Assembly (NCBI GenBank): GCA_010031735.1
Contig: RGZB01000013.1
Location: 1-50,185, forward strand
Direction: 5' to 3'
Source of the DNA: Pseudomonadota bacterium
GTDB lineage: Bacteria; Pseudomonadota; Alphaproteobacteria; Rickettsiales; RGZB01
DNA: 50,185 nucleotides
Under the pieces are notes generated by a model. The model was not told the DNA's origin and did no database searches. It saw only the letters and a program-made list of their open reading frames with translations. Shown here piece by piece: positions 4,737 through 50,180 of this stretch (position 1 is its first letter; every line of letters begins with the position of its first letter). The translations under genes and the position numbers were made by a program.

Positions 4737-4847
4737 TTATATTTCAGTCTATTGATATAGATCTGGCTAATATATTTCATTAAATAAATTTGGTGACAAT
4801 CAAATTGGCTTCTTTTATAAACCTAGCTCCAATAAAGTCCAATAAGT

Positions 4848-4923
4848 GCCTCGATAGCTCAGTTGGTAGAGCAAGGGATTGAAAATCCCTGTGTCGCTGG
4901 TTCGATTCCGGCTCGAGGCACCA
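4848..4923 (+). tRNA. tRNA-Phe (GAA)
   Basis: 76 nt including an encoded CCA. Acceptor GCCTCGA/TCGAGGC with A73, D-arm GCTC/GAGC, anticodon loop TTGAAAA (anticodon GAA) and T-loop TTCGATT. All stems pair. It lies inside the inner element, 41 bp before the AbiV-like gene. Confidence 0.95.
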
Positions 4924-4964
4924 CTTCTCCTACGCTCAAGATACTCGTGGAGTACAGCAGCTGC

Positions 4965-5924
4965 ATGGACGATATTTTAAAGAAAATTATTAAAACCTGC
5001 ATAAAGCATGCTTCCGATCTTATTGAAGCCGCTGAAGCTGTTTTTATAAACGGGAAATATAACCTTTCTTATCATCTTTCAGTTTTAGCCATAGAGGAAA
5101 TTGGAAAGGCAAATCTTCTATTGGCCAAGCATTTAGATAAAAGCTCTCCTGAAGAAAAAACTAGATGGCTTGATAAAAAGGCTTCCGATCATGAGTTAAA
5201 GCTTTTCTGGGCATTTTGGACACCGGCTTTCAGAAGTGGAACAATAACTGAAAAAGAAATTACACAAGCGAAAGATTTTGCTCGCAATGTTCATAATCTT
5301 CGAATGGAAGGCCTTTACGTAAACTACGAGGCAAAAGCCACAAAAGATATAATAAGGAAGATTCCAAAGAGTCAGGCAAGAGGCATGATAGACCTTGCTA
5401 AGGCACGAATAGATATTGAAGCTTCAAGAAAAATAAAGCCCCTGACAAAAGAACGCGCACAAATGCTTGACTGGTTCGTTTCTGCTACAGCAGATGAAGA
5501 GCAAAGAAAATTTATCTTTAGTAATTCCTCTCTTAAGGAATTACAGGAATTAAAGGATGTAATTAAATGGTTCGCTTGGCTAAAAAAACAATTTGAAGAT
5601 GCTGATAAAGAGGCTCAAGCTTTATTAGAAAAAGAGCTCAGAAGGCAAAAGCCAGAAGAGGAAGAAAAGTTTTCTCCTAAATGGAAAATAAGAACCAAAT
5701 TAATATGCTTATCTCATTCAATACGCCAATCAGCATTGAATCAATGGAATGACCATTCTCGAGGAATCATAAAGTTATACGAAGGAGACAAGAAAAAGGG
5801 TGAAATAATCGTAGATATTGTCCTTCCCAAAATTGTCCCCATGCAATCGCTCTGGTCTGCAGGGTATGGCCACATGAGACGATTTATAATAGCACTAAAT
5901 ATGGCTACTTTCAACCATCACTAA
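4965..5924 (+). CDS. AbiV-like abortive infection protein (HEPN)
   Basis: 319 aa. ATG at 4965 is chosen because the longer frame runs back into tRNA-Phe. The N-terminal helix pair AEAVFINGKYNLSYHLSVLAIEEIGKANLLL (residues about 19-50) is the hallmark of the AbiV/HEPN family, followed by the usual KASDHELKLFW. HEPN AbiV proteins act in lactococcal-type abortive infection by arresting translation; that role is carried over by family only. The middle is long, charged and helical; a second conserved-looking helix LSHSIRQSALNQW lies near residue 250. I could not place a clear RNase R-x4-6-H motif. No antitoxin-like partner is adjacent. Confidence 0.7.
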   Translation: MDDILKKIIKTCIKHASDLIEAAEAVFINGKYNLSYHLSVLAIEEIGKANLLLAKHLDKSSPEEKTRWLDKKASDHELKLFWAFWTPAFRSGTITEKEITQAKDFARNVHNLRMEGLYVNYEAKATKDIIRKIPKSQARGMIDLAKARIDIEASRKIKPLTKERAQMLDWFVSATADEEQRKFIFSNSSLKELQELKDVIKWFAWLKKQFEDADKEAQALLEKELRRQKPEEEEKFSPKWKIRTKLICLSHSIRQSALNQWNDHSRGIIKLYEGDKKKGEIIVDIVLPKIVPMQSLWSAGYGHMRRFIIALNMATFNHH

Positions 5925-6201
5925 AACAGCTCTGCTTGTAGATAGGCTTGCTGCAGATGGAATAACTCCTCTGGAGTTTTTACTTTTGGTTATGAGGGAT
6001 GAGACCAATCACATTTCTTTAAGATTTGATGCCGCCAAAGCTGCCGCGTCATTTATTCACCCCCGTCTTTCTTCTGTAGATAAGAAAATAGGTGTCTCCC
6101 TTGTAAGTAAGGAAGAAGTGCGCCAAGCTCTTTTTGATGCATGGGAAACTGCCAAGAAAAATATAGAAAAATCTAAGTTAGTTGTCGTTACTACACCATA
6201 A
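5923..6201 (+). pseudogene. 5'-truncated phage-type protein fragment
   Basis: The frame reads KTALLVDRLAADGITPLEFLLLVMRDE, then LRFDAAKAAASFIHPRLSSV. This is the layout of small phage packaging/terminase-associated proteins (GITPLEF.L.VMRD, then R.DAAKAAAP..HP.L). It has no start of its own: the frame enters from the last codons of the AbiV-like gene, and only a weak internal TTG (5986) is available. Read as a fragment left by a deletion that joined it to abiV. The terminase link is from pattern memory and is tentative. Confidence 0.5.
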
Positions 6202-6239
6202 AGGGTGTAGTTATAAATTCTAATAATTCTAAGTAGCTC

Positions 6240-6400
6240 TGAAAGCGTGAAATGTCGGTAAGTATCTGTATATAATATAATATATAGATAATTATTATAC
6301 GCTTTATTCCATTTCACGATTTATTTTAATATTCCGTTTTTTATTAAATCCTATATTAGACAATATTTTCTTTATGAAAGCGTTGAAGTCGTGAAAGCGT
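6240..6400. repeat. TGAAAGCGT iteron-like repeats
   Basis: Three exact direct copies of TGAAAGCGT at 6240-6248, 6375-6383 and 6392-6400. An inverted pair CGTGAAAT (6246-6253) / ATTTCACG (6311-6318) flanks a very AT-rich core (ATATAATATAATATATAG). Repeats plus an AT-rich unwinding-like stretch just downstream of a primase gene resemble the replication origins of phage satellites and small plasmids. Confidence 0.5.
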
Positions 6401-6416
6401 AAAATTTAATCTTTTA

Positions 6417-6785
6417 CTACTCTATTCTTTTGTATTCCTTTCTTCGCTGTCCTTGGGCGTTGTAAACTATTTCCTGTACTTCAATTTGTTCACTATCTAC
6501 AAGTTGTTTAAGAATGTCCTCTCTGTCTCTTGTGCTTAACCACTGGGATTTTCTTGTAATTACAGATTTTATAGTCCAATCGTAATTTATAATATTAAGT
6601 AGTTTTTTGGTATTGGACTCCCGCTCATTATTTGCCACATGTTGCTTTACATTTTGTGCGAGATAGTCAGCACAATAATTCGCAACATTGATTCCCCATT
6701 CCATGCAGTCTTTTGTTATCTCATCGCCGTCAGTGACGATAAGAGCAAGCTTTATGGCATGCTCGGCACATCGGGCGTAAATTGC
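6417..6785 (-). pseudogene. DUF3987-type primase/helicase remnant (C-terminus)
   Basis: The frame reads YARCAEHAIKLALIVTDG, then a winged-helix-like tail: IKSVITRKSQWLSTRDREDILKQLVDSEQIEV. This is the usual C-terminal end of satellite/prophage DUF3987 replication proteins (W.R..E.A.KLAL, then a small HTH). The frame has no proper start; an internal ATG at 6704 would give 95 aa. The matching N-terminus lies in another frame in the neighbouring AlpA gene, so about 300-400 residues, including the ATPase, were deleted and the reading frame was lost. Confidence 0.6.
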
Positions 6786-7084
6786 AGCGTAGGTTGAGGA
6801 TATATAGATATATCATTAATCCACTTTGCTATCTTACCTGCAAGGCCTGGAGGATTTAGAAGCTCCGGAGGGAACCTAGGAGGAGACATAAATTTATAAG
6901 GGCAATTTTCTAGCCAGGTCGTCACATCGTTCTCTACCCAGCCGATAGCTCGTGGGCCAATTTTCTTTGGAGAGGGGAAACATCCCTTAGATATATCGCT
7001 GTAAATAGAAGATCGGCTTCTTCCAGTGATTTTGATTACTTCAGGTAATCTAAGAATTTTTAAATGGTGTGTTTTGTCATTCAT
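6752..7084 (-). CDS. AlpA-family regulator fused to primase N-terminus
   Basis: 110 aa. Residues 1-60 are an AlpA/MerR-like winged HTH: LRLPEVIKITGRSRSSIYSDISKGCFPSPKKIGPRAIGWVENDVTTWL. In prophages and satellites this regulator controls excision and integrase expression. From residue about 66 the same frame continues into PPELLNPPGLAGKIAKWIND, which looks like the start of a DUF3987 primase, and stops after a junction. A primase start (ATG within ...YKFMSPP) in the same frame suggests either an original fusion or loss of the AlpA stop. The regulator part looks intact; the primase part is dead. Confidence 0.7.
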   Translation of the reverse strand: MNDKTHHLKILRLPEVIKITGRSRSSIYSDISKGCFPSPKKIGPRAIGWVENDVTTWLENCPYKFMSPPRFPPELLNPPGLAGKIAKWINDISIYPQPTLQFTPDVPSMP

Positions 7085-7089
7085 AAGAT

Positions 7090-7117
7090 ATGTCCTTTAA
7101 TAAGTTTATTTGGACAT
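7090..7117. promoter_or_regulatory. Palindromic operator before alpA-like gene
   Basis: Arms ATGTCC (7090-7095) and GGACAT (7112-7117) enclose an inner AATAA/TTATT palindrome. It begins 5 bp upstream of the AlpA-like start codon, a position suited to autoregulation. Confidence 0.5.
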
Positions 7118-7137
7118 AGCCTATCTTTACGAAGTGG

Positions 7138-7173
7138 TCATTGTAGCCAATTAGCTTTGTTTAGGTACAATGA
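7138..7173. promoter_or_regulatory. Perfect 8-bp inverted repeat
   Basis: TCATTGTA (7138-7145) and TACAATGA (7166-7173) are perfect complements 20 bp apart, in the gap between the alpA-like start and the end of the 149-aa gene. It could be a second operator or a stem at the 3' end of the OLD-type operon mRNA. Confidence 0.4.
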
Positions 7174-7190
7174 GCTTCAGATAATGATCT

Positions 7191-7640
7191 TCATGATTTA
7201 TTTTTTGATTTGCGAGGGTAAATTATACTTCTTGCAGATTCATCACTTATATTAAACTTTTCAGCAACGATCATTATTGCTTCCAATGCAGGTTTTCCTA
7301 CTTTTCTGAGCTGCTGGAAGGCCTCTTGTATAGGCTCTTCTTTATTAAGCTTCTTAAAATAATCTAATTTTCTTCCTCTCCGCTTTAACTTGAATGCAGT
7401 GTCTGCCTCTTCACCATTTTCAACTAATTTTAATGCCTCAATAATATAATAGACCAATCCTCTATCTATTTTACAAACAACTAGATTGCTCTTAATAACT
7501 TTTCCTTCTTCTAAGTAGCTTTTTAAATAACTAAGCAACGATCGAGCACATTTAGTGTCTCCTGCTTTTGCGCCTTCAAGAGGTAATTTAATAGTAAACT
7601 CTCTGAGGTCAAAATCTTTTATAAGTTTACTAGATGGCAT
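7191..7640 (-). CDS. Unknown protein coupled to OLD nuclease gene
   Basis: 149 aa, no recognised family. The start codon lies 11 bp inside the end of the OLD-type gene, so the two are translationally coupled. The protein is charged and helical. The C-terminal segment ALEAIMIVAEKFNISDESARSIIY looks like a helix-turn-helix, and RRGRK in the middle is basic. A regulator, partner subunit or immunity factor for the nuclease are all possible; no function can be assigned. Confidence 0.6.
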   Translation of the reverse strand: MPSSKLIKDFDLREFTIKLPLEGAKAGDTKCARSLLSYLKSYLEEGKVIKSNLVVCKIDRGLVYYIIEALKLVENGEEADTAFKLKRRGRKLDYFKKLNKEEPIQEAFQQLRKVGKPALEAIMIVAEKFNISDESARSIIYPRKSKNKS

Positions 7641-9438
7641 TAGAACTCCTAATAAAATCTACTAGGGCTTCGAGCTTTTCCGTTAAATCCAATTGGCTTA
7701 TATCTGGCTTCTGCTGTACCACCAGATGGGCAATTTTAACTTTATCTGCAGTCCGGTATTCCACTTCATCCTGAAGTTTAAACTTTAAGCATTTACTAAA
7801 TTGGGAAAAATCTGAAAACTCTTCAATCGCTTCTTGGTATAACTTATCGAGCGCTGATTTTAAGATATTTTTATCTATATAATTTTCGATTTCCCTGCCT
7901 TGAGTAACCCAAGCAAATCCTTTTCTATCTTGGGTAAATTCCTTGACTACTCTTTTTTTTGTTTCATTGATTTCTCCAGATTTTTTTGTTCCATCAGCAG
8001 TTTTGATATCACTGTCGATTACTATGCATGTGTTTCTATTGAGACTTCTAAGTGAAATGAATTCATTTATCACTTCATCTGTAGCGGTGAGATGTGATAG
8101 TAATCTTCCACCATAAAACATTATCGAATAATGCAATCCTTCTACTAAATTCTTGTCTAATTGATTGATCCAATAATTTAAATAAATTCTATCAGAAGGA
8201 CCTTCTACCCATACAATGCAATTAGACTGCATTAGGTCACTAGCGTGATAGCCTAAATCTTCGCACAAATTAAACTTATCTTGATTCGCTGTTACTGATT
8301 TTACTGCTGATTCTCCATTTTCTAATGCAACATGAAATACAGAAGCTTCTGGAAGATCTAAAATATGGGCGGAATGTGTGGTAATGAAATATTGATTATT
8401 TGTCTTTTCATGAAGATATTTAATTAATTTTCTTTGAAGAGTTGGATGTAGGTGGATTTCTGGCTCTTCAATACATACGATTTGATTTTCTAAAATAGTT
8501 GCTGCTGCAGCAATAATTAAAACTTCATGAATTCCTGTGCCAAAGGATTCAATGGGTAATACTTTATTTTCAAATTTTATAAGAATTGTGTCGGGCCTAT
8601 TACCACCTGTATTTTTACGTGGTGCATAAGGAATTTCTAATTCTGCAGATGAAATTCCTGTTACCTCCCTAACAAATTCATTAATTTTTCTGAATCGTTC
8701 TTTTTTACTTCTATACTCTAGATCCGTCGTATGTTGTGGGCTTTGTAAATCTGCAAGGCGCGGAATAATTTCCAAACCATCAAAACTTTTCTCAGCACTA
8801 TATCCCACGCCTGGTATAGCCTGCTTTGAAATTTCCCTTATGGCCGGAATAGTCTCTATCTTTATTTGTTCTGTTAGACTAAGTTGTGCTAACAAATCGG
8901 GTAAAAAACCTTCAATATTTCCGCCTGTATAGGGTAAGAAATTAATTTGAAGTTCCCGCCATGCACTTTGATTTATTGGTTTAGAAGGTCGCGGTTCTAA
9001 TATTTTTTTTATATATTGAGTACAGAACTGATGCATGGAGCTATCATTACCCCTTACGATATTAAGATCGTAAACAAACCAACAGATATCGCTTTCTGTG
9101 ATGACATTAAGTAAAAGCTCCGCTTCTGAAGCCTTATTAAGGTGCTTTTTGTATTGAGCACTATTTTTAGTAAATCCAGTAGCGATGGAAGGCAGATCTC
9201 GTGTATGAATTTTACCTTCCTGATCTCTGTGTTTATCATCTTCACCAAAACTGTATTTTCTTTGAATAAAACTATTATAGTGATTCTGTAAGAATCGAAG
9301 AATATTAGACTTTCCAGAGTTATTCTGACCGATAATAAAATTTATTTTTTTGAAAGGTCCAATATATTGGAGTGATCCAAAACTTCTATAATTCCCAATT
9401 CCTACAGCTTCTAAGAATATATTATCAGCAGAACTCAT
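7630..9438 (-). CDS. OLD-family ATP-dependent endonuclease
   Basis: 602 aa. An ABC/SMC-like ATPase head with Walker A IIGQNNSGKS (about residues 35-44), a signature-like ESFGTGIHEVL, Walker B IVCIEEPEIHLHP (about 320) and H-loop YFITTHSAHIL is followed by a TOPRIM domain with VWVEGPSDRIYL (Glu and Asp) and CIVIDSDIK. This is the full class 1 OLD architecture used in phage defence (e.g. P2 Old, GajA). No UvrD-type helicase (GajB) is present; instead the gene overlaps a 149-aa unknown gene. It lies next to the integrase in the inner element. All motifs look intact, in contrast to the shortened relative at 3465. Confidence 0.85.
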   Translation of the reverse strand: MSSADNIFLEAVGIGNYRSFGSLQYIGPFKKINFIIGQNNSGKSNILRFLQNHYNSFIQRKYSFGEDDKHRDQEGKIHTRDLPSIATGFTKNSAQYKKHLNKASEAELLLNVITESDICWFVYDLNIVRGNDSSMHQFCTQYIKKILEPRPSKPINQSAWRELQINFLPYTGGNIEGFLPDLLAQLSLTEQIKIETIPAIREISKQAIPGVGYSAEKSFDGLEIIPRLADLQSPQHTTDLEYRSKKERFRKINEFVREVTGISSAELEIPYAPRKNTGGNRPDTILIKFENKVLPIESFGTGIHEVLIIAAAATILENQIVCIEEPEIHLHPTLQRKLIKYLHEKTNNQYFITTHSAHILDLPEASVFHVALENGESAVKSVTANQDKFNLCEDLGYHASDLMQSNCIVWVEGPSDRIYLNYWINQLDKNLVEGLHYSIMFYGGRLLSHLTATDEVINEFISLRSLNRNTCIVIDSDIKTADGTKKSGEINETKKRVVKEFTQDRKGFAWVTQGREIENYIDKNILKSALDKLYQEAIEEFSDFSQFSKCLKFKLQDEVEYRTADKVKIAHLVVQQKPDISQLDLTEKLEALVDFIRSSNAI

Positions 9439-9482
9439 ATTGCCTCACCTGGTTGTGCCCTAAGCATAATGATTTACTAATA

Positions 9483-10670
9483 TTATGCTAGCTGCGCCAA
9501 ATAATCACCCCACCATTGCATCATGCGCTTACGCTCTTCGAGGTATTCAGTGTGATGGTAAGCTCCACGAATCTTGTTTTCTTCGATATGTGCAAGCTGG
9601 CGTTCTATGGCATCGCGGTTAAACTGTCCGTTTTCGTTTAGGATAGTGGATGCTGTCGCACGCATACCATGAGGAACCACTTGGCCGTGCCACCCAATAA
9701 GCTTAATCATCTTTATCAGGGTGACATCGGATATAGGCTTGTTATAGCTTACTACGCCGGGGAAAAGCACTTCGCGGTCGCCACTAATTTTGTGGATTTC
9801 CTTAAGCACTTCTAAAGCTTGAGTGGAGAGGGGTACTACATGCTCCCGGCGCATTTTCATGCGCTCTGCCGGAATGCGCCAAATAGCTTTTTCTAAGTCG
9901 AATTCAACCCAACGTGCTCCTCGTAATTCTCCCGGACGCACAAAGGTAAGCATAAGGAGCTTCATGGCGAGCTTAACAATAGGCTTCTTTCCTTCATAGG
10001 CTTCTACAGATTTTAAGAAGTCTGGGAGCTGGTGTGCCCTGAGATAGGGGCGATGTTGCCTTTTATAGCTCTTTACGTATTTAGAGCGTCCTGCAGCCGG
10101 ATTCTGGTCACAGAGGTCTTGAATGATGGCAAACTCGAAGATGTTGGTGCAGTACTGATTGATGCGCTTGGCAACATCCAAAGCACCACGCGACTCAATC
10201 TTCTTAAGAATAGCGAGTATATCATGAACGTTTACCTTCTTAATGGGCTTGCGGCCTATAATAGGGAACACGTCTTTCTCGAGGCGGCTGATAATGTTGG
10301 CGCCATACTTCGGAGCCCATGACTGCTTTTCACACCATTCCTGCGCTATCGCTTGAAAGGTGTTTTTATGTTCGCTGATGTTATCTTGTTTCTTTTTCTC
10401 TTTATGGCTATTCGGGTCAAAGCCTTCGCGCACCATCTTCCTAACATCATCTCGGAGTCTTCTGGCATCACCAGAGCTGATTTCTCCCACTCTGCCGATG
10501 GTATAGATATTATGCTTTCCGTCGAATTTGTAAGGGTATTGCCATACCTTTGTGCCGCTAGGGCGTACCAAAAGTCTTAAGCCGCCTTCATCGTACAGCT
10601 TGTAGTCCTTTTCTTGGGGCTTAGCGTTCCTTATTTCAGTTTCGGTCAGTTTACGGTTTACCTTAGGCAT
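9483..10670 (-). CDS. P4-type tyrosine integrase
   Basis: 395 aa. An N-terminal DUF4102/arm-binding domain (residues 1-90, LTETEIRNAKPQEKDYKLYD) is followed by a SAM-like core-binding domain (about 100-190) and the catalytic domain. Catalytic residues are visible: R245 in FVRPGELRGARW, K272 in MKMRREHVVPLS, HGMR (H334, R337), H361 in RQLAH and Y371 in GAYHH. It is intact and reads away from the tRNA-fMet gene, whose 3' half holds the att core. TGTACC repeats between its start and the tRNA are the expected arm sites. It should move the 3303-10877 segment; its own repeats also match those at the outer element. Confidence 0.93.
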   Translation of the reverse strand: MPKVNRKLTETEIRNAKPQEKDYKLYDEGGLRLLVRPSGTKVWQYPYKFDGKHNIYTIGRVGEISSGDARRLRDDVRKMVREGFDPNSHKEKKKQDNISEHKNTFQAIAQEWCEKQSWAPKYGANIISRLEKDVFPIIGRKPIKKVNVHDILAILKKIESRGALDVAKRINQYCTNIFEFAIIQDLCDQNPAAGRSKYVKSYKRQHRPYLRAHQLPDFLKSVEAYEGKKPIVKLAMKLLMLTFVRPGELRGARWVEFDLEKAIWRIPAERMKMRREHVVPLSTQALEVLKEIHKISGDREVLFPGVVSYNKPISDVTLIKMIKLIGWHGQVVPHGMRATASTILNENGQFNRDAIERQLAHIEENKIRGAYHHTEYLEERKRMMQWWGDYLAQLA

Positions 10671-19263: not shown

Positions 19264-21015
19264 ATGGTTGAAACCCCGCGTATCAGCAATACCACATCGG
19301 TGACGCCGACCAATACGGCGCGTACGGTACCGGCGCAAGTGCCGCAAGCGATCGCATCGCTCCCTGCGGGAACGGTGCTGAATGCTCTCGTGCTGAAGAA
19401 TGATAAGAACGGTAACGTGGTGATCTCCACCACGCAAGGTGCGTTCACGGTCTCGAGCCCGATACCGCTCAAAGAAGGTGCAACGCTACAGTTGCGTGTA
19501 TATCTCAACCAACCGGTCACGGGCGGCAGCAACAGCCTCACGAGCGCGCAACATTTCCAGGCGCAGATTTTGAGCATCGATGGCAAACCCGCTCCGCTTC
19601 CGACACAGAATCCGAATCCAACCGCTGCTACGACGCAACCTCAGCCGAATACCAATCCACCAACCTCGCAGGTATTGGTCGCGACCGATCCCGCGACAGG
19701 TAAACCTGCACCTATCATCACCGCGGTCAACCAACAGGGCCAGCAGACGCTTGTGGACAATGCCGCGAAAGCGTCGGTGAATACAGTCGTCCCCGCAGCA
19801 GCCACAGTGGTGCGTGTAACCGGGGGTGCCACGCTTCGCGCGGTATTGATTTCACCTGCGCCCGATGCAGAAAACTTCCTGCCGCCGGCAACGACGCCGG
19901 CACTCAGTGCTGCGGCGAAACAAGCGGCGGCGGTGTATGGCAATACCAATGCAGGCAATCCTGCGGCGCAGACCCAGGCACAACCATTACTGAAAGGCGG
20001 TGATGTGCTGGTGTTGAGAGTGGCAAGCCCGCCGACGCTGCCCGGCGCTGCACCCACGGTTTCTCCTACGACGACTACAACCACACTGCTGACTGCAGCA
20101 CAAACGACGACGCAAACTGCAACACCCACCACAGTGCTGCCCCAAAACACATTCATTGCGACGGTGATCGGCACGGAGGCTTCCGGCGAAGCGGTGCTGC
20201 AAACACCTCTCGGCACGATTAAACTGCTCGCACAAAATGAATTGCCGAACGGTGCAAAACTGACGCTCGAGATCGTGAAACTCCAAGCAGGTGAAGCACC
20301 GCTTGCCACGGCCGCACAGGATACGGATGCGTTCTTACCCCCGCCGCTCGATAGTGATCTGACGGAACTTGCAACCTTAGTGAAAACGCAAGGGAGTGCC
20401 GCGCAGCAAGCAGCCCTCGACCGCATCCTGCCGCAGGCGAACGATCCGCAATTCGCAGCGAAACTCCTGTGGTTCTTAACCGGTGTACAGCAAGGGGACG
20501 CAACGCAGTGGATGGGTGCGCAGCTTACGCGCTTCTTAGAGCAGAATGATAAAGTCGGACTGATACAGAAGATACAGAAAGATTTCGGACGTCTCAAACA
20601 AGTATCGACGGAGGGTGTCAGCCAATGGAATACGATGTTCTTCCCGGTGCTGAACGGCAATACGATCGAGCATGGTGCGATGTTCACCCGCCACTATCCC
20701 GCAGACCAGGATGGTAACCAGGAAGATGGTACACGCTTCATCGTTGAGGTCGATTATTCGACCCTTGGGATGGTGCAGCTGGATGGGTTTGTCAAAAACA
20801 AAACGGGCAAGAAGGCATTCGACTTGTTCCTGCGGAGTAAAGAAGCGCTGCCCGATGAAGCACGAAGCGATATCAGCAGCATCTTCTCGACCGCGCTCGA
20901 GATCGGCGGCTTCACCGGCGCATTACAATTCCAGCAGGTGAAGGAATTCCCGGTCGACCCGCTGGTGGATATCAAAGAATTCCAAGCCAAAGGGGCCGGT
21001 GATATCGTGGCATAA
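19264..21015 (+). CDS. FliK-like protein with low-complexity linker
   Basis: 583 aa. Residues 1-100 look folded (LPAGTVLNALVLKNDKNGNVVIST...LKEGATLQLRVY). Residues about 110-300 are a Pro/Thr/Gln/Ala-rich linker, including T-rich runs. Residues 400-583 resemble the FliK/hook-length C-terminal domain: QWNTMFFPVLNG, RFIVEVDYSTLGMVQLDGFVK, FDLFLRSKEALP, GFTGALQFQQV. FliK-type proteins measure flagellar hook length, but no flagellar gene is in the window and alphaproteobacteria keep several non-flagellar relatives. No signal peptide. Confidence 0.6.
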   Translation: MVETPRISNTTSVTPTNTARTVPAQVPQAIASLPAGTVLNALVLKNDKNGNVVISTTQGAFTVSSPIPLKEGATLQLRVYLNQPVTGGSNSLTSAQHFQAQILSIDGKPAPLPTQNPNPTAATTQPQPNTNPPTSQVLVATDPATGKPAPIITAVNQQGQQTLVDNAAKASVNTVVPAAATVVRVTGGATLRAVLISPAPDAENFLPPATTPALSAAAKQAAAVYGNTNAGNPAAQTQAQPLLKGGDVLVLRVASPPTLPGAAPTVSPTTTTTTLLTAAQTTTQTATPTTVLPQNTFIATVIGTEASGEAVLQTPLGTIKLLAQNELPNGAKLTLEIVKLQAGEAPLATAAQDTDAFLPPPLDSDLTELATLVKTQGSAAQQAALDRILPQANDPQFAAKLLWFLTGVQQGDATQWMGAQLTRFLEQNDKVGLIQKIQKDFGRLKQVSTEGVSQWNTMFFPVLNGNTIEHGAMFTRHYPADQDGNQEDGTRFIVEVDYSTLGMVQLDGFVKNKTGKKAFDLFLRSKEALPDEARSDISSIFSTALEIGGFTGALQFQQVKEFPVDPLVDIKEFQAKGAGDIVA

Positions 21016-23242: not shown

Positions 23243-24490
23243 CTAACGGCCTTGCCAGATTTGCGGCTTACCGGTGTGGTCGGTCACCATCTCGATGAAG
23301 CTCTGTTCGCTCTGTGCGAGGCGTAGTCCTGCTTCGCGTTTTGCTTCGGATGAGAGTAAAAGTGCCTGAAGGGTACGAAGCCATTCCGTGCTGTTGCGTG
23401 CGATGTTTTCATGCCCGCACTCGATGCAGGAACCGAGCATCGCATTGCCGAATGCCTGGATGATATGTGCGGTAGGGGAAGTTTGGAAATAACTCATACC
23501 GCGCGAACGATTCATGCGGTTGGTGTTGAGAATCGCGCGCGGATCATGGCCTTGCTGGTCCGGAAAACGGTTACCCGTGATTTCCCACAAAATCTCCGGT
23601 GCATCGCCTGGTCGGGGCAGGTGGCTCACCTCGGGTACAGGACGCGGACCGGGTCCGATCCAATCCAATTTTGCCGATAGTATCTCACGCTTCGGAGGAC
23701 GCGAGACAACGAAAAGCGTGCGTGGATCGACCCAGTGATCCATGATCATGGCTTCCGGCGCCGCGGCAGACAAACGATCCATCAACGCCGCATTCTTCTC
23801 GCTGCGGAAGCGGACAAAATCGTCGTATATCGAAACGAAATGGCCGGTAGGTATATTATGTGGCTTGGCGATGGCATCGGAGGTGGGACAGGCCGTAAGG
23901 CCCATCAATGAACCGGTGCAGGCGACTATCTGCGCTTCGGAATAACCACGCTCCGTCATCAAATGATGGAGGGCATTGCCCACTTGTTGCATGAACACAC
24001 TGCCGAAACTGATGCCTGCAAAACCGGTCTTGCTGAACAGGCGTTTTAAAGCCAGTGTCGCGCTATTCGACTTGGGGGCATCCATGCCCCGCACATCAGG
24101 GATGAACGGGCCCCACATCGCGGTTACGAATTCCATCGCGGGAATATCGAAATGCTTCGCGGGATCATCGTTGAAATTCCGCGTCATGTTCCAGGTGGTG
24201 AATTCGTTCGGGAAGGTGAAGTCGGCGGTGACGATCAATGTCTCATAATCGCCGGGATCGGGTTTTTCAGTGAGTGGGTTGGTCTCGATCATGTTATATA
24301 AAGTGCCGGCCGTGCGGCCTAATTCATCTTCAAGGGTGCTGCCTTTGCGGTTCTCGAAGATCTCGCGGCCCGGGAACATAAACATATAGGCTTTGCCAGG
24401 CGGCAGGCTCGTCACCGGCGTGAAGCCCGTTGCCCGTCGCGACATGTCACGAGAAATATGCCAGATATCAATGTGATGTAGTGGTCCCAT
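23243..24490 (-). CDS. Unknown 415-aa protein with GxSxG motif
   Basis: 415 aa, no family recognised, no signal peptide. Residues 159-163 read GISFG, a nucleophile-elbow-like GxSxG after the hydrophobic-looking stretch TGFA. Aspartates follow in MIMDHWVDPRTLFVVS and there are many His residues, so a serine hydrolase is conceivable. Cysteines cluster in GSCIECGH. It converges with uvrC (1 bp apart) and its start faces a CtrA-type box 25 bp upstream. Real by codon use and length; function unknown. Confidence 0.6.
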   Translation of the reverse strand: MGPLHHIDIWHISRDMSRRATGFTPVTSLPPGKAYMFMFPGREIFENRKGSTLEDELGRTAGTLYNMIETNPLTEKPDPGDYETLIVTADFTFPNEFTTWNMTRNFNDDPAKHFDIPAMEFVTAMWGPFIPDVRGMDAPKSNSATLALKRLFSKTGFAGISFGSVFMQQVGNALHHLMTERGYSEAQIVACTGSLMGLTACPTSDAIAKPHNIPTGHFVSIYDDFVRFRSEKNAALMDRLSAAAPEAMIMDHWVDPRTLFVVSRPPKREILSAKLDWIGPGPRPVPEVSHLPRPGDAPEILWEITGNRFPDQQGHDPRAILNTNRMNRSRGMSYFQTSPTAHIIQAFGNAMLGSCIECGHENIARNSTEWLRTLQALLLSSEAKREAGLRLAQSEQSFIEMVTDHTGKPQIWQGR

Positions 24491-24514: not shown

Positions 24515-24530
24515 TTAAGAAAGATTTAAC
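24515..24530 (+). promoter_or_regulatory. CtrA-type box upstream of 142-aa gene
   Basis: TTAA (24515) -N7- TTAAC (24526-24530), with the -10 candidate TAGATT starting 11 bp later at 24541. A GANTC (GATTC, 24543-24547), the CcrM methylation site of alphaproteobacteria, overlaps that -10. The box also reads as TTAA-N7-TTAAC on the other strand, towards the 415-aa gene. Confidence 0.65.
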
Positions 24531-30280: not shown

Positions 30281-30874
30281 CTAGCTGGTCGGCTGTGCGC
30301 CTTTTTGGAAGTGTTCCTTGATCTCCGGCGCGCCGCTCCTGAAATACTGGGCCAGACGCTGGATGCGGTTCACTTCGTTCTTCGGCACCTTGCCTTTCGG
30401 CTTCAGGTGGCAATCGTTACCGAACGCGAACATCAGCGACTGCTCAAGGCCGTTACGCACTTGCTCCTGCTCGCGCACGAACTCCGCGAAACCTTCGCTT
30501 AAACTCAGGCCGTTTTCCTGCGAATCCGCTTGAAGCAGCCCCTCGAAGGCATCGATCATCACATTATGTTTCACATGGATCGCCATGTTGGATACGCCAT
30601 GGATGGAGTTGGCTTTCTCCGCACGAAGCCCTTTGCCTGCGAAGGCACGGAGTAGTTGCTGCGTGCATTGGATCTTTGCGCGGTCATCCAGTCCTGCGAT
30701 CTCGAGTTCGATATACGGATCGCCGTCTTCGCCGACACCGCGGTTGATCGTAAGGGTCGCGGTTTGATTCACACCACCCTCCGTATTCAACTGCATGGTG
30801 CCTTTGTATCCGGTTGCGGTCCGAGAGATACGTTTGGTACCAAATTTACCGTTATCTGACTTGAATTCTGCCAT
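30281..30874 (-). CDS. Unknown 197-aa protein with CtrA-type box upstream
   Basis: 197 aa, soluble, no family recognised. The N-terminal third looks beta-rich (GKFGTKRISRTATGYKGTMQLNTEGG, ATLTINRGVGEDGDPYIELEIAGL); the rest is helical with FAEFVREQEQVRNGLEQ. It converges with the zeta-subunit gene. The 228-bp region upstream holds a TTAA-N7-TTAA box, so it may share control with the 142-aa and 162-aa genes. Confidence 0.55.
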   Translation of the reverse strand: MAEFKSDNGKFGTKRISRTATGYKGTMQLNTEGGVNQTATLTINRGVGEDGDPYIELEIAGLDDRAKIQCTQQLLRAFAGKGLRAEKANSIHGVSNMAIHVKHNVMIDAFEGLLQADSQENGLSLSEGFAEFVREQEQVRNGLEQSLMFAFGNDCHLKPKGKVPKNEVNRIQRLAQYFRSGAPEIKEHFQKGAQPTS

Positions 30875-30989: not shown

Positions 30990-31005
30990 TTAAATAACCG
31001 TTAAC
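30990..31005 (-). promoter_or_regulatory. CtrA-type box upstream of 197-aa gene
   Basis: On the plus strand TTAA (30990) -N7- TTAAC (31001-31005); on the minus strand also TTAA-N7-TTAA. The best -10 for the minus gene is TCTAAT at 30975-30970, 14 bp from the box. Less certain than the other three boxes. Confidence 0.45.
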
Positions 31006-32418: not shown

Positions 32419-32907
32419 TTAACGCTTCGGTTCTGTCGTACTGCGAAGCTGTGCAACGGCCTGGGAGAGTTGGGTAAGACCGGGCGAGGTCGTAACGATC
32501 GCAGGGATCGGAAGATCAAAGTGGGTAAAGGCCTGCTCGATCAGGGTGCGGGCGGTCTGGCCTTTTGGATGGTTCGGGTCGATGTTACCGTACGCTTCCC
32601 CGAGGGCGTTTGCGAGCATATCCGCATCGACATTACGTGTGTTGCGATGGGTGAGGTTCTCAAGTCTGCGACCAAGGCGCATGTGTGCATTCTCTTTCTG
32701 GCCGGCCTCAGGGTCTTCTAAAAAACGCGCGCGTGCTTCGGGTGTAAGCGGGGCTAATACCGTTTCTGCATCGTTAGTCCTTCCAATGGATATAAAACTC
32801 GCGCGGACAGAGGCGCCTGTCAGGAATAACGGCTGTAACGCCGTATTCAATCGGCGGAATATAGCCTCATGTTCTGGCGGTAATTCGTCGCGGTTGATGA
32901 TAGCCAT
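32419..32907 (-). CDS. Unknown 162-aa protein, CtrA-type promoter
   Basis: 162 aa, soluble, mostly helical, no family recognised: MAIINRDELPPEHEAIFRRLNTALQ at the start, PLTPEARARFLEDPEAGQKENAH in the middle. Preceded by GGGGAGG. The opposite frame is also open (32326-32721), but the minus gene has the ribosome site and a well-formed CtrA-type promoter. Probably monocistronic. Confidence 0.6.
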   Translation of the reverse strand: MAIINRDELPPEHEAIFRRLNTALQPLFLTGASVRASFISIGRTNDAETVLAPLTPEARARFLEDPEAGQKENAHMRLGRRLENLTHRNTRNVDADMLANALGEAYGNIDPNHPKGQTARTLIEQAFTHFDLPIPAIVTTSPGLTQLSQAVAQLRSTTEPKR

Positions 32908-32931: not shown

Positions 32932-32964
32932 ACTATAGCAGGAAACGACTTAAAGATTGATTAA
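32932..32964 (-). promoter_or_regulatory. CtrA-type promoter of 162-aa gene
   Basis: On the minus strand TTAA-N7-TTAA (32964-32950) is followed by the -10 TATAGT (32937-32932), which starts 12 bp after the box. The layout is the same as at 24515 and 36994. Confidence 0.65.
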
Positions 32965-36993: not shown

Positions 36994-37025
36994 TTAACCG
37001 AATCTTAACCGCCAGGCCGTATACT
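36994..37025 (+). promoter_or_regulatory. CtrA-type promoter of the four-gene unknown operon
   Basis: TTAA (36994) -N7- TTAAC (37005-37009), then the -10 TATACT at 37020-37025, starting 11 bp after the box. A GANTC site (GAATC, 37000-37004) lies inside the spacer, the arrangement in which CcrM methylation can affect CtrA binding. Confidence 0.7.
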
Positions 37026-37051
37026 AAGGGTATAAAATTGTGAGAGGGAAT

Positions 37052-37762
37052 ATGCCTGATTTCAAAACACTACCGATAGTGGATGCAAGTCTTGGACTAA
37101 ACATAGTATTTACCACCCAGCCCACCGGCCAGAGGTCCATCCTTTTTTCCGCGGGTCTCACGGATGCCCCTGCCGTATTCGATGGTAGTCCGGTTGATCC
37201 TGCACGCCAGGAAAAGATCACTAAAGCAGCAGAAAAGATAACCAAGTATCTGGGAGGTATCGGCTGTACCGCCGAACCGCTTGGTGGTCCTGTCAATTCA
37301 GAAGGCGTGTGTCTTACTATCAGCCACGCACGCAAAAGTGCCGCGGATATCGAAGGGTTCGTCGAAGTCGCGGTCGGCAAACTTGAAGGACATAAAGGCG
37401 ACCTCGCGGCACTCTTTTCACGTATCGATGCAAAACATGCCGATGCTGCAAGAAGGGCCGATATGGATGCGCCGACAGAAATGGTGCAGCTTTCCCCCGC
37501 AGAACTGGAGCGCCTGAAGATGATGGCCGTTGGTGCGAAGTTACTGACCGATAAAGGTACGAACGGTATGGTGGTCAAGGCGATGGGCGAGGATATGAGG
37601 GTCGCTATCGGCCGTGCAGCGACCATGCTGGTCGAACAGGGTATGGATCGGGAGGATGTGGTGAAAATGGATCATAACCTGCTCACTAAAATCGGTAAAG
37701 GTCTGGAAGCGGAGCGCACCAAAGGTCTCGCAGAAGGCAAACAAAGCAGTATCCGATTATAA
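37052..37762 (+). CDS. Unknown operon protein 1
   Basis: 236 aa from ATG 37052 behind GAGAGGG. No signal peptide or membrane segment, no known family. An N-terminal beta-like part (residues 10-100: LGLNIVFTTQPTGQRSILFSAGL, GVCLTISHARKSAADIEGFVEVAV) is followed by a helical C-terminal half rich in Lys/Glu/Met (LSPAELERLKMMAVGAKLL, MGEDMRVAIGRAATMLVEQGM). First of four genes separated by 17-19 bp gaps. Confidence 0.65.
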   Translation: MPDFKTLPIVDASLGLNIVFTTQPTGQRSILFSAGLTDAPAVFDGSPVDPARQEKITKAAEKITKYLGGIGCTAEPLGGPVNSEGVCLTISHARKSAADIEGFVEVAVGKLEGHKGDLAALFSRIDAKHADAARRADMDAPTEMVQLSPAELERLKMMAVGAKLLTDKGTNGMVVKAMGEDMRVAIGRAATMLVEQGMDREDVVKMDHNLLTKIGKGLEAERTKGLAEGKQSSIRL

Positions 37763-37779
37763 GTCTCAAGAGAGGTGCT

Positions 37780-38472
37780 ATGAGCAAACTTACGATCACA
37801 CAAGTACCCCATCTGGATAATGAAGCCGGTGCATGGGTATTCGGCAAGGACATCGTGGCGGTTTCTATGAAAACCCCCGATCCAGAGACAGGTTACGTCT
37901 TTTTCACCGATATCAATCGTAATCCTATCGAAAAAGCGAGTGCGCATGTCGAGCGGATGCATGCGGTCGCCATTACATTCAAACGGATATTCACAGGCAC
38001 AGATGAAACAAAGATCATCGGCGTTTCAGGGGAAGTGCGCCCACTACGATCCGAACCGGGCAAGCCGCGTGGCTTTGTGGTGAAATCGCCAGGCGATCCG
38101 GATTCCACCGCTACGGTACACGATAAGATAAGTGTGACGTTCAGTGTTATGGGACGTACACCTGCAATAGCAGAGAGACTATCAGAACAGTTCGATGCGA
38201 TCGATGCAAGGCATGGCGTGGTAAAACCTGCTGCCGGCTGGCTTGCGACCCATGGTGACATCCATCTGAACGATGCCGCTCCTGCAGGAAATACATTGCA
38301 AACGCAATTGGGTGGCACGAGTGGGGTAACGGGTGTGCATGATGCACGCGAGCTTGCCGCACAACTGGCGAGGAAGGGCCTTACTCCGCTCGGAGAGAAA
38401 GAAAGTGGCCTTGGTGAACTCGCCAAGGATGCGAAGAAACCGGACCTGCCGAAAAAATTGCCGCCTAAATAA
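37780..38472 (+). CDS. Unknown operon protein 2
   Basis: 230 aa, soluble, no known family. Beta-rich N-terminal half (GAWVFGKDIVAVSMKTPDPETGYVFFTDINRN, HAVAITFKRIFTG), then HDARELAAQLARKGLTPLGEK and an ending ESGLGELAKDAKKPDLPKKLPPK. That tail aligns with the end of operon protein 3 (TPLG..E..LG.L..D.K...L.K.LPP). A shared tail on otherwise different proteins suggests a common docking or export signal, or a common C-terminal domain edge. Confidence 0.65.
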   Translation: MSKLTITQVPHLDNEAGAWVFGKDIVAVSMKTPDPETGYVFFTDINRNPIEKASAHVERMHAVAITFKRIFTGTDETKIIGVSGEVRPLRSEPGKPRGFVVKSPGDPDSTATVHDKISVTFSVMGRTPAIAERLSEQFDAIDARHGVVKPAAGWLATHGDIHLNDAAPAGNTLQTQLGGTSGVTGVHDARELAAQLARKGLTPLGEKESGLGELAKDAKKPDLPKKLPPK

Positions 38473-38489
38473 CGAGCCAAGAGTGTGGT

Positions 38490-39842
38490 ATGCGTGTCAA
38501 CGGTGAAAAATTAAAGGGCTGGATCGATTACCTTCAGGTAGCAAGTGTTCTGCGCTTTGACACCATGGGTGTGGTGATGCGTGGTATCCCGCTTACCTAC
38601 GATAACCAGCAAGCAGCCTTAGTATCGAGCGATAATGTGGGGCCGGATGTGCTCGCCGGTATCAAGCGCAACGTCGACCGTCTGGGTTTTGAAGGTGGTA
38701 TCACCGAATCGGCGGGTGAATACGGCAACGTGAATTTCGAGACTGTCATCACCGCTCTTGATACCGATGCACTTGCACCACGCGAGGTGGCTGCCAAAGA
38801 GCGCGCAGATACGCAAAAGAAATTAGGACATGCTGCGGAGGTACTAGAGGAACTCGTGGATAAATTTCGCAAGGAACTACCGTATGACCAGTTGCCGAGT
38901 ACGGTGAAGCAGGCGCTTCGTGATCATACCAAAACGAGTACCCATGCACCCATCAAAGGCATACGTGAACGTATCGAAGGCAGTGAGCCGGAACGCGCGA
39001 AGCCACACTATCTGACACTCACGATGTTCGATGCTTTTCGTTTATTCGCCTGGGCCAATGTGCAAGGCTCTCGCGATGCCGATCTCTACCAGCGTTTCGA
39101 ACTGGCCGATCTGGAGCAATTGACCGAGAGGGTGAAACGTGTGAACACACTGATCGCACCGGACCGCAAGGATCCGATACGCACGGCAGATGTCGAAGTG
39201 ACGGCGCTACCCGGTGGTGGCTACAACAGCGTACGCCGGATTGCGGAACAGACGAAAGACCGCATCGATATGGTGGCAGAGCTGATCGAGATCGCCAGCC
39301 AGGGTGCGCGTAAACTCCGTCCTAGTTTTGTAAAACTGGATGAAGAGCTTAAGACAGCAAATCTCGTTCTTGGCACGGCACTCTATCACAACAGCGGTTT
39401 CTCCGACCGGGTCGAAGATGCACTTCTGGATACCATGTACGGGATGTTGGTGGAACGCAAACAGGAACGTCCGAATTCGCTCATCGATCAGATACGACAA
39501 GCCATTGCTGGCAACACCGCGACATTTAACAAGAAGACCCAACCTATGTTCAAGGACGAGATACGTCTGGACGAAACACAAAAGCCTGCGCGCGTGGTGC
39601 TGCTCGTGGACGATACCACGAGCTTCGATGAAGTGGCGAAAGCGCTCAAGGTGGCACGCGGTGCAGTCGGTCGTGTTCCGAAAGGGCCGGTGCATGAAGT
39701 GGTCGTGAATGTGGAGATACTCACTGCGGCACTGGGGATCCGAGTGGGTGCTATTACACCGCTTGGTGCAGGAGAGGAGAACCTGGGTCAGCTCTCGAGG
39801 GATACCAAAGCGCGACTGTCCAAGAACCTACCACCGCAATAG
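38490..39842 (+). CDS. Unknown operon protein 3
   Basis: 450 aa, soluble, no known family. Begins MRVNGEKLKGWIDYLQVASVLRFDTMGVVMRG. A helical, probably coiled segment (about 105-145, VAAKERADTQKKLGHAAEVLEELVDKF) is followed by a central helical part (LTMFDAFRLFAWANVQGSRDADLYQRF). Near the end, VVLLVDDTTSFDEVAKALKVARGAVG precedes the shared tail ITPLGAGEENLGQLSRDTKARLSKNLPPQ. The largest protein of the operon and possibly its scaffold. Confidence 0.65.
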   Translation: MRVNGEKLKGWIDYLQVASVLRFDTMGVVMRGIPLTYDNQQAALVSSDNVGPDVLAGIKRNVDRLGFEGGITESAGEYGNVNFETVITALDTDALAPREVAAKERADTQKKLGHAAEVLEELVDKFRKELPYDQLPSTVKQALRDHTKTSTHAPIKGIRERIEGSEPERAKPHYLTLTMFDAFRLFAWANVQGSRDADLYQRFELADLEQLTERVKRVNTLIAPDRKDPIRTADVEVTALPGGGYNSVRRIAEQTKDRIDMVAELIEIASQGARKLRPSFVKLDEELKTANLVLGTALYHNSGFSDRVEDALLDTMYGMLVERKQERPNSLIDQIRQAIAGNTATFNKKTQPMFKDEIRLDETQKPARVVLLVDDTTSFDEVAKALKVARGAVGRVPKGPVHEVVVNVEILTAALGIRVGAITPLGAGEENLGQLSRDTKARLSKNLPPQ

Positions 39843-39861
39843 ATGAGATACGTAGAGAAAT

Positions 39862-40710
39862 ATGGGCATCGATACGAAAATAGCAGGCGTAACCGTAAAG
39901 ACCCACATCGACGGTGGTCGTATTTTATTGGTGTTCGATGCCGATCGTCCCGAAGGTGCGAAGGTCACGCCGTTCCATGTGGCGCGGACAAAAATAGTCC
40001 ATGGGGAAATGTATTTTAGCCAATTCGAGCTAGCAGGCGTGGAGCGTATCAAAAACGATGCACCGCCGGGCTCGCCGAACAGTGCCGCCATCATTTTACG
40101 GGTTCCCGGTGGCGAGGATTCCCTCGTTATGCGAGAGATCGGCGATTTCGTACGCTACCTGCAGAATAATGCGACTGGCCTTATGCTGCGCATGGCAGTC
40201 GCGTGCCGCCGGATCGCGCGTGCGGAAGCGCTTGATGAAGCGTCTCGTCATGCGCGTCTGCAATTAGGCCTGGGGCTAAAAGCACATCCCGGCGAACACT
40301 TACCGGACGATGCCATCGCTGCTATCGTACAAGAAAAGGTCTATGCATTGCTGCACGGCAAGCCGCTCAATCCTGCGTTCGACATGACGGAAATCGTGCC
40401 TCCGGTGCCGGAGGGCAGGATGAAAGCGGCAGGAGAACATCTCTATGGTATGCTGAATCGTATCACCACGCGTCCGCCGGTCGAAGGCACGAATATAGAC
40501 GGACTCTTGACGCTTGGCCTCGTAGAGGTAATCACCGGTAGTACGGATATCGTGCCGAGCGAAGCGCCACTTGCAACGCGTGAACTCGCCGAGGAAATGG
40601 TACCCTCACTCACCGGCATGTTGCTTGAGCTTGGCAGACGCGGAGAGGCGCCACCCCGGTTCGATCCGCGGGGTAGGATCATCCCGAATACAGGCCGTAC
40701 AGGCAGGTAG
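39862..40710 (+). CDS. Unknown operon protein 4
   Basis: 282 aa, soluble, no known family. Beta-rich start (DGGRILLVFDADRPEGAKVTPFHVARTKIVHGEMYFSQFELAG), then helices (EIGDFVRYLQNNATGLMLRMAVACRRIARAEALDEASRHARLQLGLGL). The tail is Arg/Gly/Pro-rich (PPRFDPRGRIIPNTGRTGR) and differs from the tail of proteins 2 and 3. Last gene; a T-run (TTTTTTT) follows the stop, without a clear stem. Confidence 0.65.
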   Translation: MGIDTKIAGVTVKTHIDGGRILLVFDADRPEGAKVTPFHVARTKIVHGEMYFSQFELAGVERIKNDAPPGSPNSAAIILRVPGGEDSLVMREIGDFVRYLQNNATGLMLRMAVACRRIARAEALDEASRHARLQLGLGLKAHPGEHLPDDAIAAIVQEKVYALLHGKPLNPAFDMTEIVPPVPEGRMKAAGEHLYGMLNRITTRPPVEGTNIDGLLTLGLVEVITGSTDIVPSEAPLATRELAEEMVPSLTGMLLELGRRGEAPPRFDPRGRIIPNTGRTGR

Positions 40711-48542: not shown

Positions 48543-50180
48543 CTACCGTTTTTTCTTCACGTCTTTGGTTTTTTCTTCTGTTTTCTGATGTTTGCGCGGA
48601 TCGTACGGCTCTTGTTGCGGTACGAACGTCTTCGGCAACAATTTGGACGTGAAGAATTTGTCTTTGTAGTAGAAAATTTTCTTGGTTTTGATCGGCGGGC
48701 AGGATTCGATCAGGATGATCTGCTCGTCGCGCGGCAACCCGATCACTTCTTGCGGCAGCAGTAGGGCACGTTGCGCTTCCGACACGTTCTTCGAGCGTGA
48801 AGCTGGGTTTAGGTCAAGGAACACCGGTGCGTTACGCGAGTATTGTTTCACGGTTTTGTTGCCGATCAGTTGCGAGATCAGGTTCGCGGTTTCCATGTTG
48901 TTCGCGGAGAACGTGATACGGTACGTCGAGTTCGACAGGAACGAGTTCATGCCGGATTCCTCGTAGATACCTTTCAGCTGTTCGGTATCTTGGATGATGA
49001 GGAAGAGACGCACTTTATAACCGCGGAAGTAGGCGATACCGGTCTGGAAGATTTCCATTTTCCCTAAGCTCGGGAATTCGTCCATCACGAACATGATACC
49101 GATCTTCTCTTCCGGAAGCGGCATGTGTTTAGTGAGGATGGATGCCGCCTGCTGGTAGAAGATCTGCATCAAAGGTTTCAAGCGGGCGATGTTATCCGGT
49201 GTCAGGCCCACATAGATGGTGGTCGCCTCACGCTTCACCATGTTGAAGTCGAAATCGCTCTTCGCCGTGGTGGCGTCGATCAGCGGGTTCGCCCAGAGTT
49301 CGAGCGAGGAGTTGAGCGTGGAGATCACGCCGGAGCGTTCTTTGTCGGCTTTCTGCAGGAAGGCCGCGATGTTCATGTAGGCGACCGGGTGGATCTCTTT
49401 GCCGATGGTATCTAAGACCACGGCCAAGTTATAGACCACGTCGTCGCTACGCAGTGTACGGACGACCTCGCCGAAAGATTTCGTTTTTTCCGGTACCGCA
49501 AGGAGATAGAGCACCACGCCAAGGAAGAGGGAGCGTGCCTCGTTCTGCCAGAATTCTTGTTCCGGGAGAAGTAAGCTTGCGATCTTCTGTACGTCGTCGA
49601 CCATCTGGCCCATTTTCGGGCTTACCCAGTCAAGCGGGTTGTAGCAGTGGCTGGTGCCGTCCGGTGATGCCGCATTCCAGAGATAGGTTTTTTGTTTCAG
49701 TTTGTCTTTGCGGTAGCCGCTCGTCAGTTCGTAGTTCTCGAGTTTAATATCGTGCACGACCAGTGAATCCTGCCAGTAGAGCAGGTTGGGGATGACGAAG
49801 CCCACACCTTTACCGGAGCCGGTCGGTGCGAAGAGCAGTGCGTGCTGGTAGCCATCGGCGGTCAGATATTTACCCTTGTAGGTGCCAAGCAGCATGCCCT
49901 TTTTCGACAGCAGCTTCGCCTTCTTCACGTCGCTAGGCGTTGCCCATTTCGCATCACCGTGGATTTTCTCTTTCGCTTTGAAAGGACGGAAATCCGCCAT
50001 CGGCGCGCGGAGGAAATAGAATACCACGAGCATAATGACCAGGCTTGCGATGACCGGCGCGAAGATCGTCGCGGCATACGAGGTCGGCAGCTGTGAACTA
50101 TATTGCAGGTAATAGCTGATGAGACCGGAGAAGGTTTTGATGAGCTGAGTCGGATCGGAGATGAGCGGCGCATACGCCAT
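48543..50180 (-). CDS. virD4: Type IV secretion coupling protein VirD4/TraG
   Basis: 545 aa, with the 5' end only 5 bp from the window edge, so the start is not certain. An N-terminal membrane segment (about 37-57) is followed by GDAKWAT and Walker A FAPTGSGKGVGFVIPNLL (about 118-134). Walker B FVMDEFPSLGKM and a Lys-rich end (EEKTKDVKKKR) follow. It is the ATPase that hands substrates to a type IV secretion channel. Other vir genes are expected to the right of the window, given that this one reads leftward. Confidence 0.9.
   Translation of the reverse strand: MAYAPLISDPTQLIKTFSGLISYYLQYSSQLPTSYAATIFAPVIASLVIMLVVFYFLRAPMADFRPFKAKEKIHGDAKWATPSDVKKAKLLSKKGMLLGTYKGKYLTADGYQHALLFAPTGSGKGVGFVIPNLLYWQDSLVVHDIKLENYELTSGYRKDKLKQKTYLWNAASPDGTSHCYNPLDWVSPKMGQMVDDVQKIASLLLPEQEFWQNEARSLFLGVVLYLLAVPEKTKSFGEVVRTLRSDDVVYNLAVVLDTIGKEIHPVAYMNIAAFLQKADKERSGVISTLNSSLELWANPLIDATTAKSDFDFNMVKREATTIYVGLTPDNIARLKPLMQIFYQQAASILTKHMPLPEEKIGIMFVMDEFPSLGKMEIFQTGIAYFRGYKVRLFLIIQDTEQLKGIYEESGMNSFLSNSTYRITFSANNMETANLISQLIGNKTVKQYSRNAPVFLDLNPASRSKNVSEAQRALLLPQEVIGLPRDEQIILIESCPPIKTKKIFYYKDKFFTSKLLPKTFVPQQEPYDPRKHQKTEEKTKDVKKKR

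What the first reader, a model, noticed from the sequence alone, without database searches (positions are those of the whole stretch)
36994..40710. Four-gene operon of unknown soluble proteins behind a CtrA-type promoter
Genes of 236, 230, 450 and 282 aa follow each other at 17-19 bp gaps; none matches a family I know. Proteins 2 and 3 end in alignable tails (TPLG..E..LG.L..D.K...L.K.LPP). Each of proteins 1, 2 and 4 has a beta-rich N-terminal part, which may be one repeated domain. A regular operon, one shared tail and cell-cycle-type control suggest subunits of one machine. This is the best candidate in the window for a new system.
Basis: partly seen in the sequence, partly recalled or inferred. 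Interest (0 to 1): 0.8.

Follow-up and report, generated by a model that had tools for sequence, protein, structure and literature searches.

The report
CtrA-driven operon of candidate secreted orphans
Four genes found in no other genome we searched are switched on by a cell-cycle-type promoter that drives about fifty transcription units in the same Rickettsiales bacterium, mostly unknown soluble proteins with similar polar protein ends, so they look like part of a set of exported proteins rather than the parts of one machine.

Summary
The operon is real: 236, 230, 450 and 282 aa, gaps 17/17/19 bp. No relative was found in 263 genomes of its order (P1, P4), 385 of its class (P3), phages or plasmids (P3), IMG/VR, or Pfam, NCBIfam, PHROGs and PDB sequences. 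The host is a flagellated Rickettsiales MAG with CtrA and an rvh-type T4SS.

Its promoter has a CtrA box at 36994 and a -10 (TATACT) exactly 26 bp downstream. Genome-wide, 57 of 227 oriented boxes carry a -10-like hexamer at that offset, against about 4 at other offsets. About 52 such promoters are found. About 34 of 46 lead genes tested match no Pfam family, against 1 of 20 random genes. The encoded proteins are soluble and end in polar, Arg/Gly-rich C-termini, not seen at mid-protein or N-terminal control positions.

The tail shared by P2 and P3 is conserved at protein level and recurs in proteins from at least two unlinked CtrA-box units. The proposed repeated N-terminal domain has no sequence support; a weak P1 model resembles secretion chaperones.

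Best reading (about 0.5): P1-P4 belong to a CtrA-controlled set of exported proteins, probably T4SS substrates. "Subunits of one machine" is not supported. Secretion was not tested; T4SS co-regulation is unproven.

The parts
36994..37009 (+). CtrA box TTAACCGAATCTTAAC
   Evidence: intergenic, near-palindromic
37020..37025 (+). -10 hexamer TATACT, 26 bp from the start of the box
   Evidence: same offset as the genome-wide peak
37052..37762 (+). P1, 236 aa orphan; low-confidence model of residues 1-126 is bbb-a-bb-a, weakly like class I secretion chaperones
37780..38472 (+). P2, 230 aa orphan, carries the LG[E/Q/K]L[A/S] tail
38380..38469 (+). P2 C-terminal tail, residues 201-230
38490..39842 (+). 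P3, 450 aa orphan, carries the same tail
39750..39839 (+). P3 C-terminal tail, residues 421-450
39862..40710 (+). P4, 282 aa orphan, ends in an Arg-rich tail (RFDPRGRIIPNTGRTGR)
32950..32964 (-). Further CtrA box with -10 at +27, promoter of orphan 32419-32907
32419..32907 (-). 162 aa orphan of the same regulon, tail ...RSTTEPKR
30281..30874 (-). 197 aa orphan downstream of CtrA box 30990-31004 (no consensus -10)
23243..24490 (-). 415 aa orphan next to CtrA box 24515-24529
48543..50180 (-). VirD4 coupling protein of the rvh-type T4SS, the proposed receptor
   Evidence: NF010472, 966.7 bits against a cut-off of 728; 78% identical to Rickettsiales MAGs

Best explanation
P1-P4 are one transcription unit of a CtrA-activated regulon whose products are mostly lineage-specific soluble proteins made for export, most likely through the VirB/VirD4 (rvh) T4SS, when CtrA is active (perhaps the motile, dispersing cell type). 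Shown: the operon, the promoter architecture, the size and orphan-rich content of the regulon, and the C-terminal signatures. Inferred: that CtrA activates these promoters, that the polar Arg/Gly C-termini (and, in P2, P3 and a few others, the LG[E/Q/K]L[A/S] tail) are recognised by VirD4, and that the proteins act in another cell. P1 may be a secretion-chaperone-like partner of P2-P4; this rests on a weak model.
For: Promoter: CtrA gene present (NF045991, 394 bits against a cut-off of 350). 63 of 65 strict boxes are intergenic although 82% of the sequence is coding. The -10 peak is at +26 (57 boxes, about 4 at other offsets) and control boxes give 0-2, apart from one shifted overlap. Content: 46 lead genes tested hit 23 Pfam families, which I group into about 12 proteins; 1 of 20 random genes has no hit; Fisher 2e-7. 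Proteins: 3 of 51 with a TM-like segment against 389 of 1524. Tails: last 10 aa, hydrophobic residues 2.46 against 3.81 (p 4e-9), Arg 1.25 against 0.65 (5e-5), Gly 1.35 against 0.61 (1e-5); mid-protein and N-terminal controls flat; Arg in the last 3 residues 26/51 against 324/1524. Tail motif LG[EDQK][LVI][AS]: 4 of 73 regulon proteins, 1 of 1524 others. By reasoning, that one is probably C175_6715, which follows a CtrA box by 138 bp. Apparatus: VirD4, VirB8 and VirB9, a second VirB8/VirB9 pair. Box-linked enzymes with known folds (asparaginase, deaminases, LOG, adenosine deaminase) carry the same kind of tail.
Against: No translocation or VirD4 binding was tested. Net positive charge of the tails is only weakly raised (p 0.055 at 10 aa, 0.009 at 20 aa). 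The tail comparison is with all other genes, not with orphans outside the regulon; orphans as such may have polar tails. A box lies 40 bp upstream of virB8, but the -10 at the right offset serves the divergent 1395-aa gene, and VirB8 relatives in other genomes lack a strict box. The tail motif was chosen after seeing hits. No P1-P4 relatives exist to test selection.
Confidence: 0.5

Rival explanations
1. P1-P4 form one intracellular complex of the CtrA-phase cell; the P2/P3 tail is a docking peptide for a common scaffold inside the cell.
For: Compact operon with regular gaps; tail conserved as protein; soluble proteins without signal peptide-like segment.
Against: The tail recurs in proteins of unlinked units and is absent from P1 and P4. 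Some 50 other units share the promoter type. No sequence relationship among P1-P4 outside the tail.
Confidence: 0.2
2. The regulon is a collection of young, fast-evolving lineage-specific genes controlled by CtrA without any export function; polar tails are a by-product of being orphan proteins.
For: No homologs even in the order; orphans often have disordered ends (general knowledge).
Against: Box-linked members with known enzymatic folds carry the same tails; the tail motif is under protein-level constraint.
Confidence: 0.2
3. The proteins are exported, but by another route or at another target: a type I system, the flagellar exporter, or a bacteria-killing use of the T4SS as suggested for basal Rickettsiales (PMC9352585).
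For: RTX proteins occur in this genome and in the CtrA-linked set; flagellin and cheA operons have boxes; P1 model weakly resembles type III secretion chaperones.
Against: P1-P4 have no RTX or flagellar features; the flagellin and cheA boxes lack the consensus -10.
Confidence: 0.1

Closest known systems
Effector genes under PmrA or CpxR elements in Legionella (PMC2701608)
   Same: A response-regulator binding site shared by many scattered, unrelated genes for proteins with C-terminal export signals
   Different: Here the regulator is CtrA, the secretion system is VirB/VirD4 type, and export is not shown
VirB/VirD4 T4SS substrates (PMC8714903)
   Same: Short C-terminal signals with a few positively charged residues, read by VirD4
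   Different: Arg/Gly-rich with only weakly raised net charge; no family match of P1-P4 to any known effector; an LG[E/Q/K]L[A/S] tail not known to me elsewhere
CtrA regulons of alphaproteobacteria (PMC2877005)
   Same: CtrA boxes upstream; flagellin and chemotaxis genes are also box-linked
   Different: Enriched categories reported there include signal transduction and cell wall; here the targets are mostly genes without any Pfam family
Class I type III secretion chaperones (SigE, SicP, VecA)
   Same: Weak fold resemblance of the P1 model, residues 1-126, best Z 6.2 (rmsd 3.0, 92 aligned)
   Different: No sequence match; model pLDDT 52; unrelated folds score Z about 5

Membership tests
CtrA regulon | CtrA encoded in the genome | tested here: met
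   NF045991 above cut-off
CtrA regulon | TTAAN7TTAAC box upstream with a -10 at the genome-wide consensus distance | tested here: met
   36994 and 37020
CtrA regulon | CtrA binding and CtrA-dependent expression | not testable with these tools
   needs ChIP or RNA-seq; uncultured MAG
VirB/VirD4 T4SS substrate | A T4SS with coupling protein in the same genome | tested here: met
VirB/VirD4 T4SS substrate | Hydrophilic, positively charged C-terminal signal | tested here: inconclusive
   Polar Arg/Gly ends significant for the regulon as a group, net charge weak; cannot be assigned per protein
VirB/VirD4 T4SS substrate | Co-expression with the T4SS | tested here: inconclusive
   Box 40 bp from virB8 but its -10 fits the divergent gene
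VirB/VirD4 T4SS substrate | VirD4-dependent translocation | not testable with these tools
Class I secretion chaperone (P1) | CesT/SicP-like fold | tested here: inconclusive
   E 0.066, prob 0.97 for VecA; SigE Z 6.2, several chaperones at 4.8-5.4, unrelated folds close behind
Class I secretion chaperone (P1) | Pfam or NCBIfam family match | tested here: not met

The most novel reading that the evidence does not exclude
A Rickettsiales bacterium runs a dedicated arsenal of some 50 CtrA-activated units, mostly of lineage-specific proteins exported through its VirB/VirD4 system by an Arg/Gly C-terminal signal and an LG[E/Q/K]L[A/S] tail, tying protein injection to the cell-cycle master regulator. 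P1-P4 is a four-gene unit of it, possibly with its own chaperone.
Probability: 0.4. Interest if true: 0.8.

Novelty: new variant of a known kind. Interest (0 to 1): 0.62.

Why it matters
Basal Rickettsiales carry an rvh T4SS, but hardly any known effectors could be assigned to it in two basal families (PMC9352585). A promoter signature that picks out about 50 units, mostly orphans with a common kind of C-terminus, would give a short, testable list of candidate substrates and would link secretion to CtrA. G009, of another family, has 92 boxes against 6 in the control, so the idea can be checked elsewhere.

Tried and rejected
Paralogs of P1, P2 and P3 in the own genome: none beyond the tail. Relatives: P3 in 55 relatives and 385 genomes of the class, P4 and P1 in 263 of the order (only chance-level hits), P3, P1, P2, P4 in IMG/VR, P3 in phages and plasmids, P4 in GTDB contigs by short exact patterns, PDB sequences. 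Weak AbiEii hit of P3 (E 0.004) set aside: 62 residues, far below a family match. Common N-terminal domain: Smith-Waterman z-scores at most 4.4 in 705 pairs. Structure of P3: pLDDT 35, unusable. Structure of P1: pLDDT 52. CtrA box upstream of virB8 as a conserved feature: absent in relatives. Promoter class in 537 kb around virD4 of 80 named relatives: 4 boxes, none with the -10. First tail test on the looser box set gave no charge difference; the promoter-defined set is sharper.

Full report
WHAT IS THERE. Four genes on the + strand at 37052-40710 (P1 236, P2 230, P3 450, P4 282 aa; gaps 17, 17 and 19 bp) lie between a carboxyltransferase gene that I read as pccB (- strand, from its sequence) and a pseudouridine synthase gene (- strand). 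All have positive coding scores, no strongly hydrophobic segment by hydropathy, and GC like the window. No Pfam, NCBIfam or PHROG family is met. Searches for relatives in the own genome, the order, the class, phages, plasmids, IMG/VR and PDB sequences found nothing beyond chance; not every protein was searched in every collection. The genome is a 2.38 Mb MAG in 251 contigs, 98.7% complete. Its VirD4 is up to 78% identical to that of Rickettsiales MAGs and passes the NCBIfam VirD4 model, so it is a Rickettsiales member; no other genome of its family appeared among the relatives held.

THE PROMOTER. I rebuilt 2.07 Mb of the genome from fetched stretches. TTAAN7TTAAC occurs 65 times there, 63 times between genes although 82% of the sequence is coding, while spacings N3-N6 and N8-N11 give 4-11 each. 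Aligning the boxes showed a second element: a -10-like hexamer TAnnnT starting 26 bases after the box start (22 of 58). With all 227 oriented TTAAN7TTAA boxes it is 57 at offset 26 against about 4 at most other offsets. Control boxes give 0-2 (one overlapping control gives 13). The operon's box at 36994 has TATACT at 37020, exactly at that offset. CtrA itself is encoded. This is the strongest single result.

THE REGULON. Fifty-two such promoters have a gene start within 180 bp. I scanned 46 lead genes with Pfam: 23 families, many belonging to one protein (glutamate synthase, a histidine kinase, helix-turn-helix proteins), which I group into about 12 proteins with any hit; if the grouping is wrong the number could be a few higher. 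Among 20 random genes only one has no hit; Fisher 2e-7. The encoded proteins are soluble (3 of 51 with a TM-like segment against 389 of 1524). Within the looser box-linked set, members with known folds include cytidine-deaminase-like, LOG/SLOG, adenosine-deaminase-like, asparaginase and PfkB-like proteins; one box at C47 stands between two divergent operons with two deaminase/LOG pairs and an adenosine-deaminase-like protein.

THE TAILS. Against soluble, length-matched other genes, regulon C-termini have fewer hydrophobic residues, more Arg and more Gly; mid-protein and N-terminal stretches do not differ. The P2/P3 tail is 48% identical over 31 aa (E 6e-5), with 10 of 14 shared residues encoded by different codons. 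LG[EDQK][LVI][AS] in the last 32 residues occurs in 4 of 73 regulon proteins (P2, P3, C187_3016, C2_16995) and 1 of 1524 others. By reasoning the one is C175_6715, found downstream of a CtrA box. The pattern was refined after seeing hits, so the p-value (2e-5, and it includes P2 and P3) is optimistic. An earlier, stricter pattern at a fixed position gave 3 of 4 new carriers box-linked (binomial 0.0014).

STRUCTURE. P3 gave no usable model. P1 gave pLDDT 52 with bbb-a-bb-a in residues 1-112. Foldseek's top hit and several others are class I type III secretion chaperones; VIA-align gives SigE Z 6.2 (rmsd 3.0, 92 aligned) and SicP, VecA, ExsC and SycT at 5.1-5.4, but topoisomerase and LuxS rows are at 5.0-5.5. 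This is a hint, not an assignment. I found no sequence support for a common N-terminal domain.

HOW IT LIKELY WORKS. When CtrA is active, it activates some 50 promoters, this operon among them. The products are soluble proteins with a flexible polar C-terminus. [quoted passage not shown] I therefore infer export through the T4SS whose VirD4 gene lies 8 kb away. Not shown: CtrA dependence, VirD4 binding, export, target. T4SS co-regulation is not demonstrated: the box upstream of virB8 has its correctly placed -10 on the other side, in front of a 1395-aa exported-looking protein, and relatives lack the box.

Operon, CtrA-type promoter and shared tail stand. 'Subunits of one machine' and 'one repeated domain' do not have support. 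The finding is more interesting as a member of a genome-wide promoter-defined set than as a stand-alone system.

Noticed in passing
L065:1434-9063 (G000 C47): One CtrA box (4196) between two divergent operons that carry two deaminase/LOG pairs and an adenosine-deaminase-like protein, several with Gly/Arg-rich ends.
   Followed up: partly
L190:375-4562 (-): 1395-aa protein with a signal-like start and a Ser/Gly repeat C-terminus, divergent from virB8-virB9 and with the correctly placed CtrA -10; function not identified (NCBIfam only a low-complexity hit).
   Followed up: partly
G009 (whole genome, no locus): Member of another family of the order with 92 TTAAN7TTAAC sites against 6 in the reversed control, and the closest VirB8 (42%). 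G020 and G021 are also enriched.
   Followed up: partly
L194:4622-4783: Small ORF that looks to me like a TIGR02996 repeat-companion domain, overlapping the start of the tail-bearing protein C175_6715, next to flagellin genes.
   Followed up: no
G000 C180 (L128): Contig with a prepilin-type protein that looks planctomycete-like; possibly part of the 3.35% contamination of the MAG.
   Followed up: no
window 19264-21015: 583-aa protein without Pfam hit that resembles a FliK-type hook-length protein by eye.
   Followed up: no
window 3465-10670: OLD-like TOPRIM/AAA protein, a 602-aa AAA-like ATPase and a phage integrase: probably a mobile or defence island.
   Followed up: no
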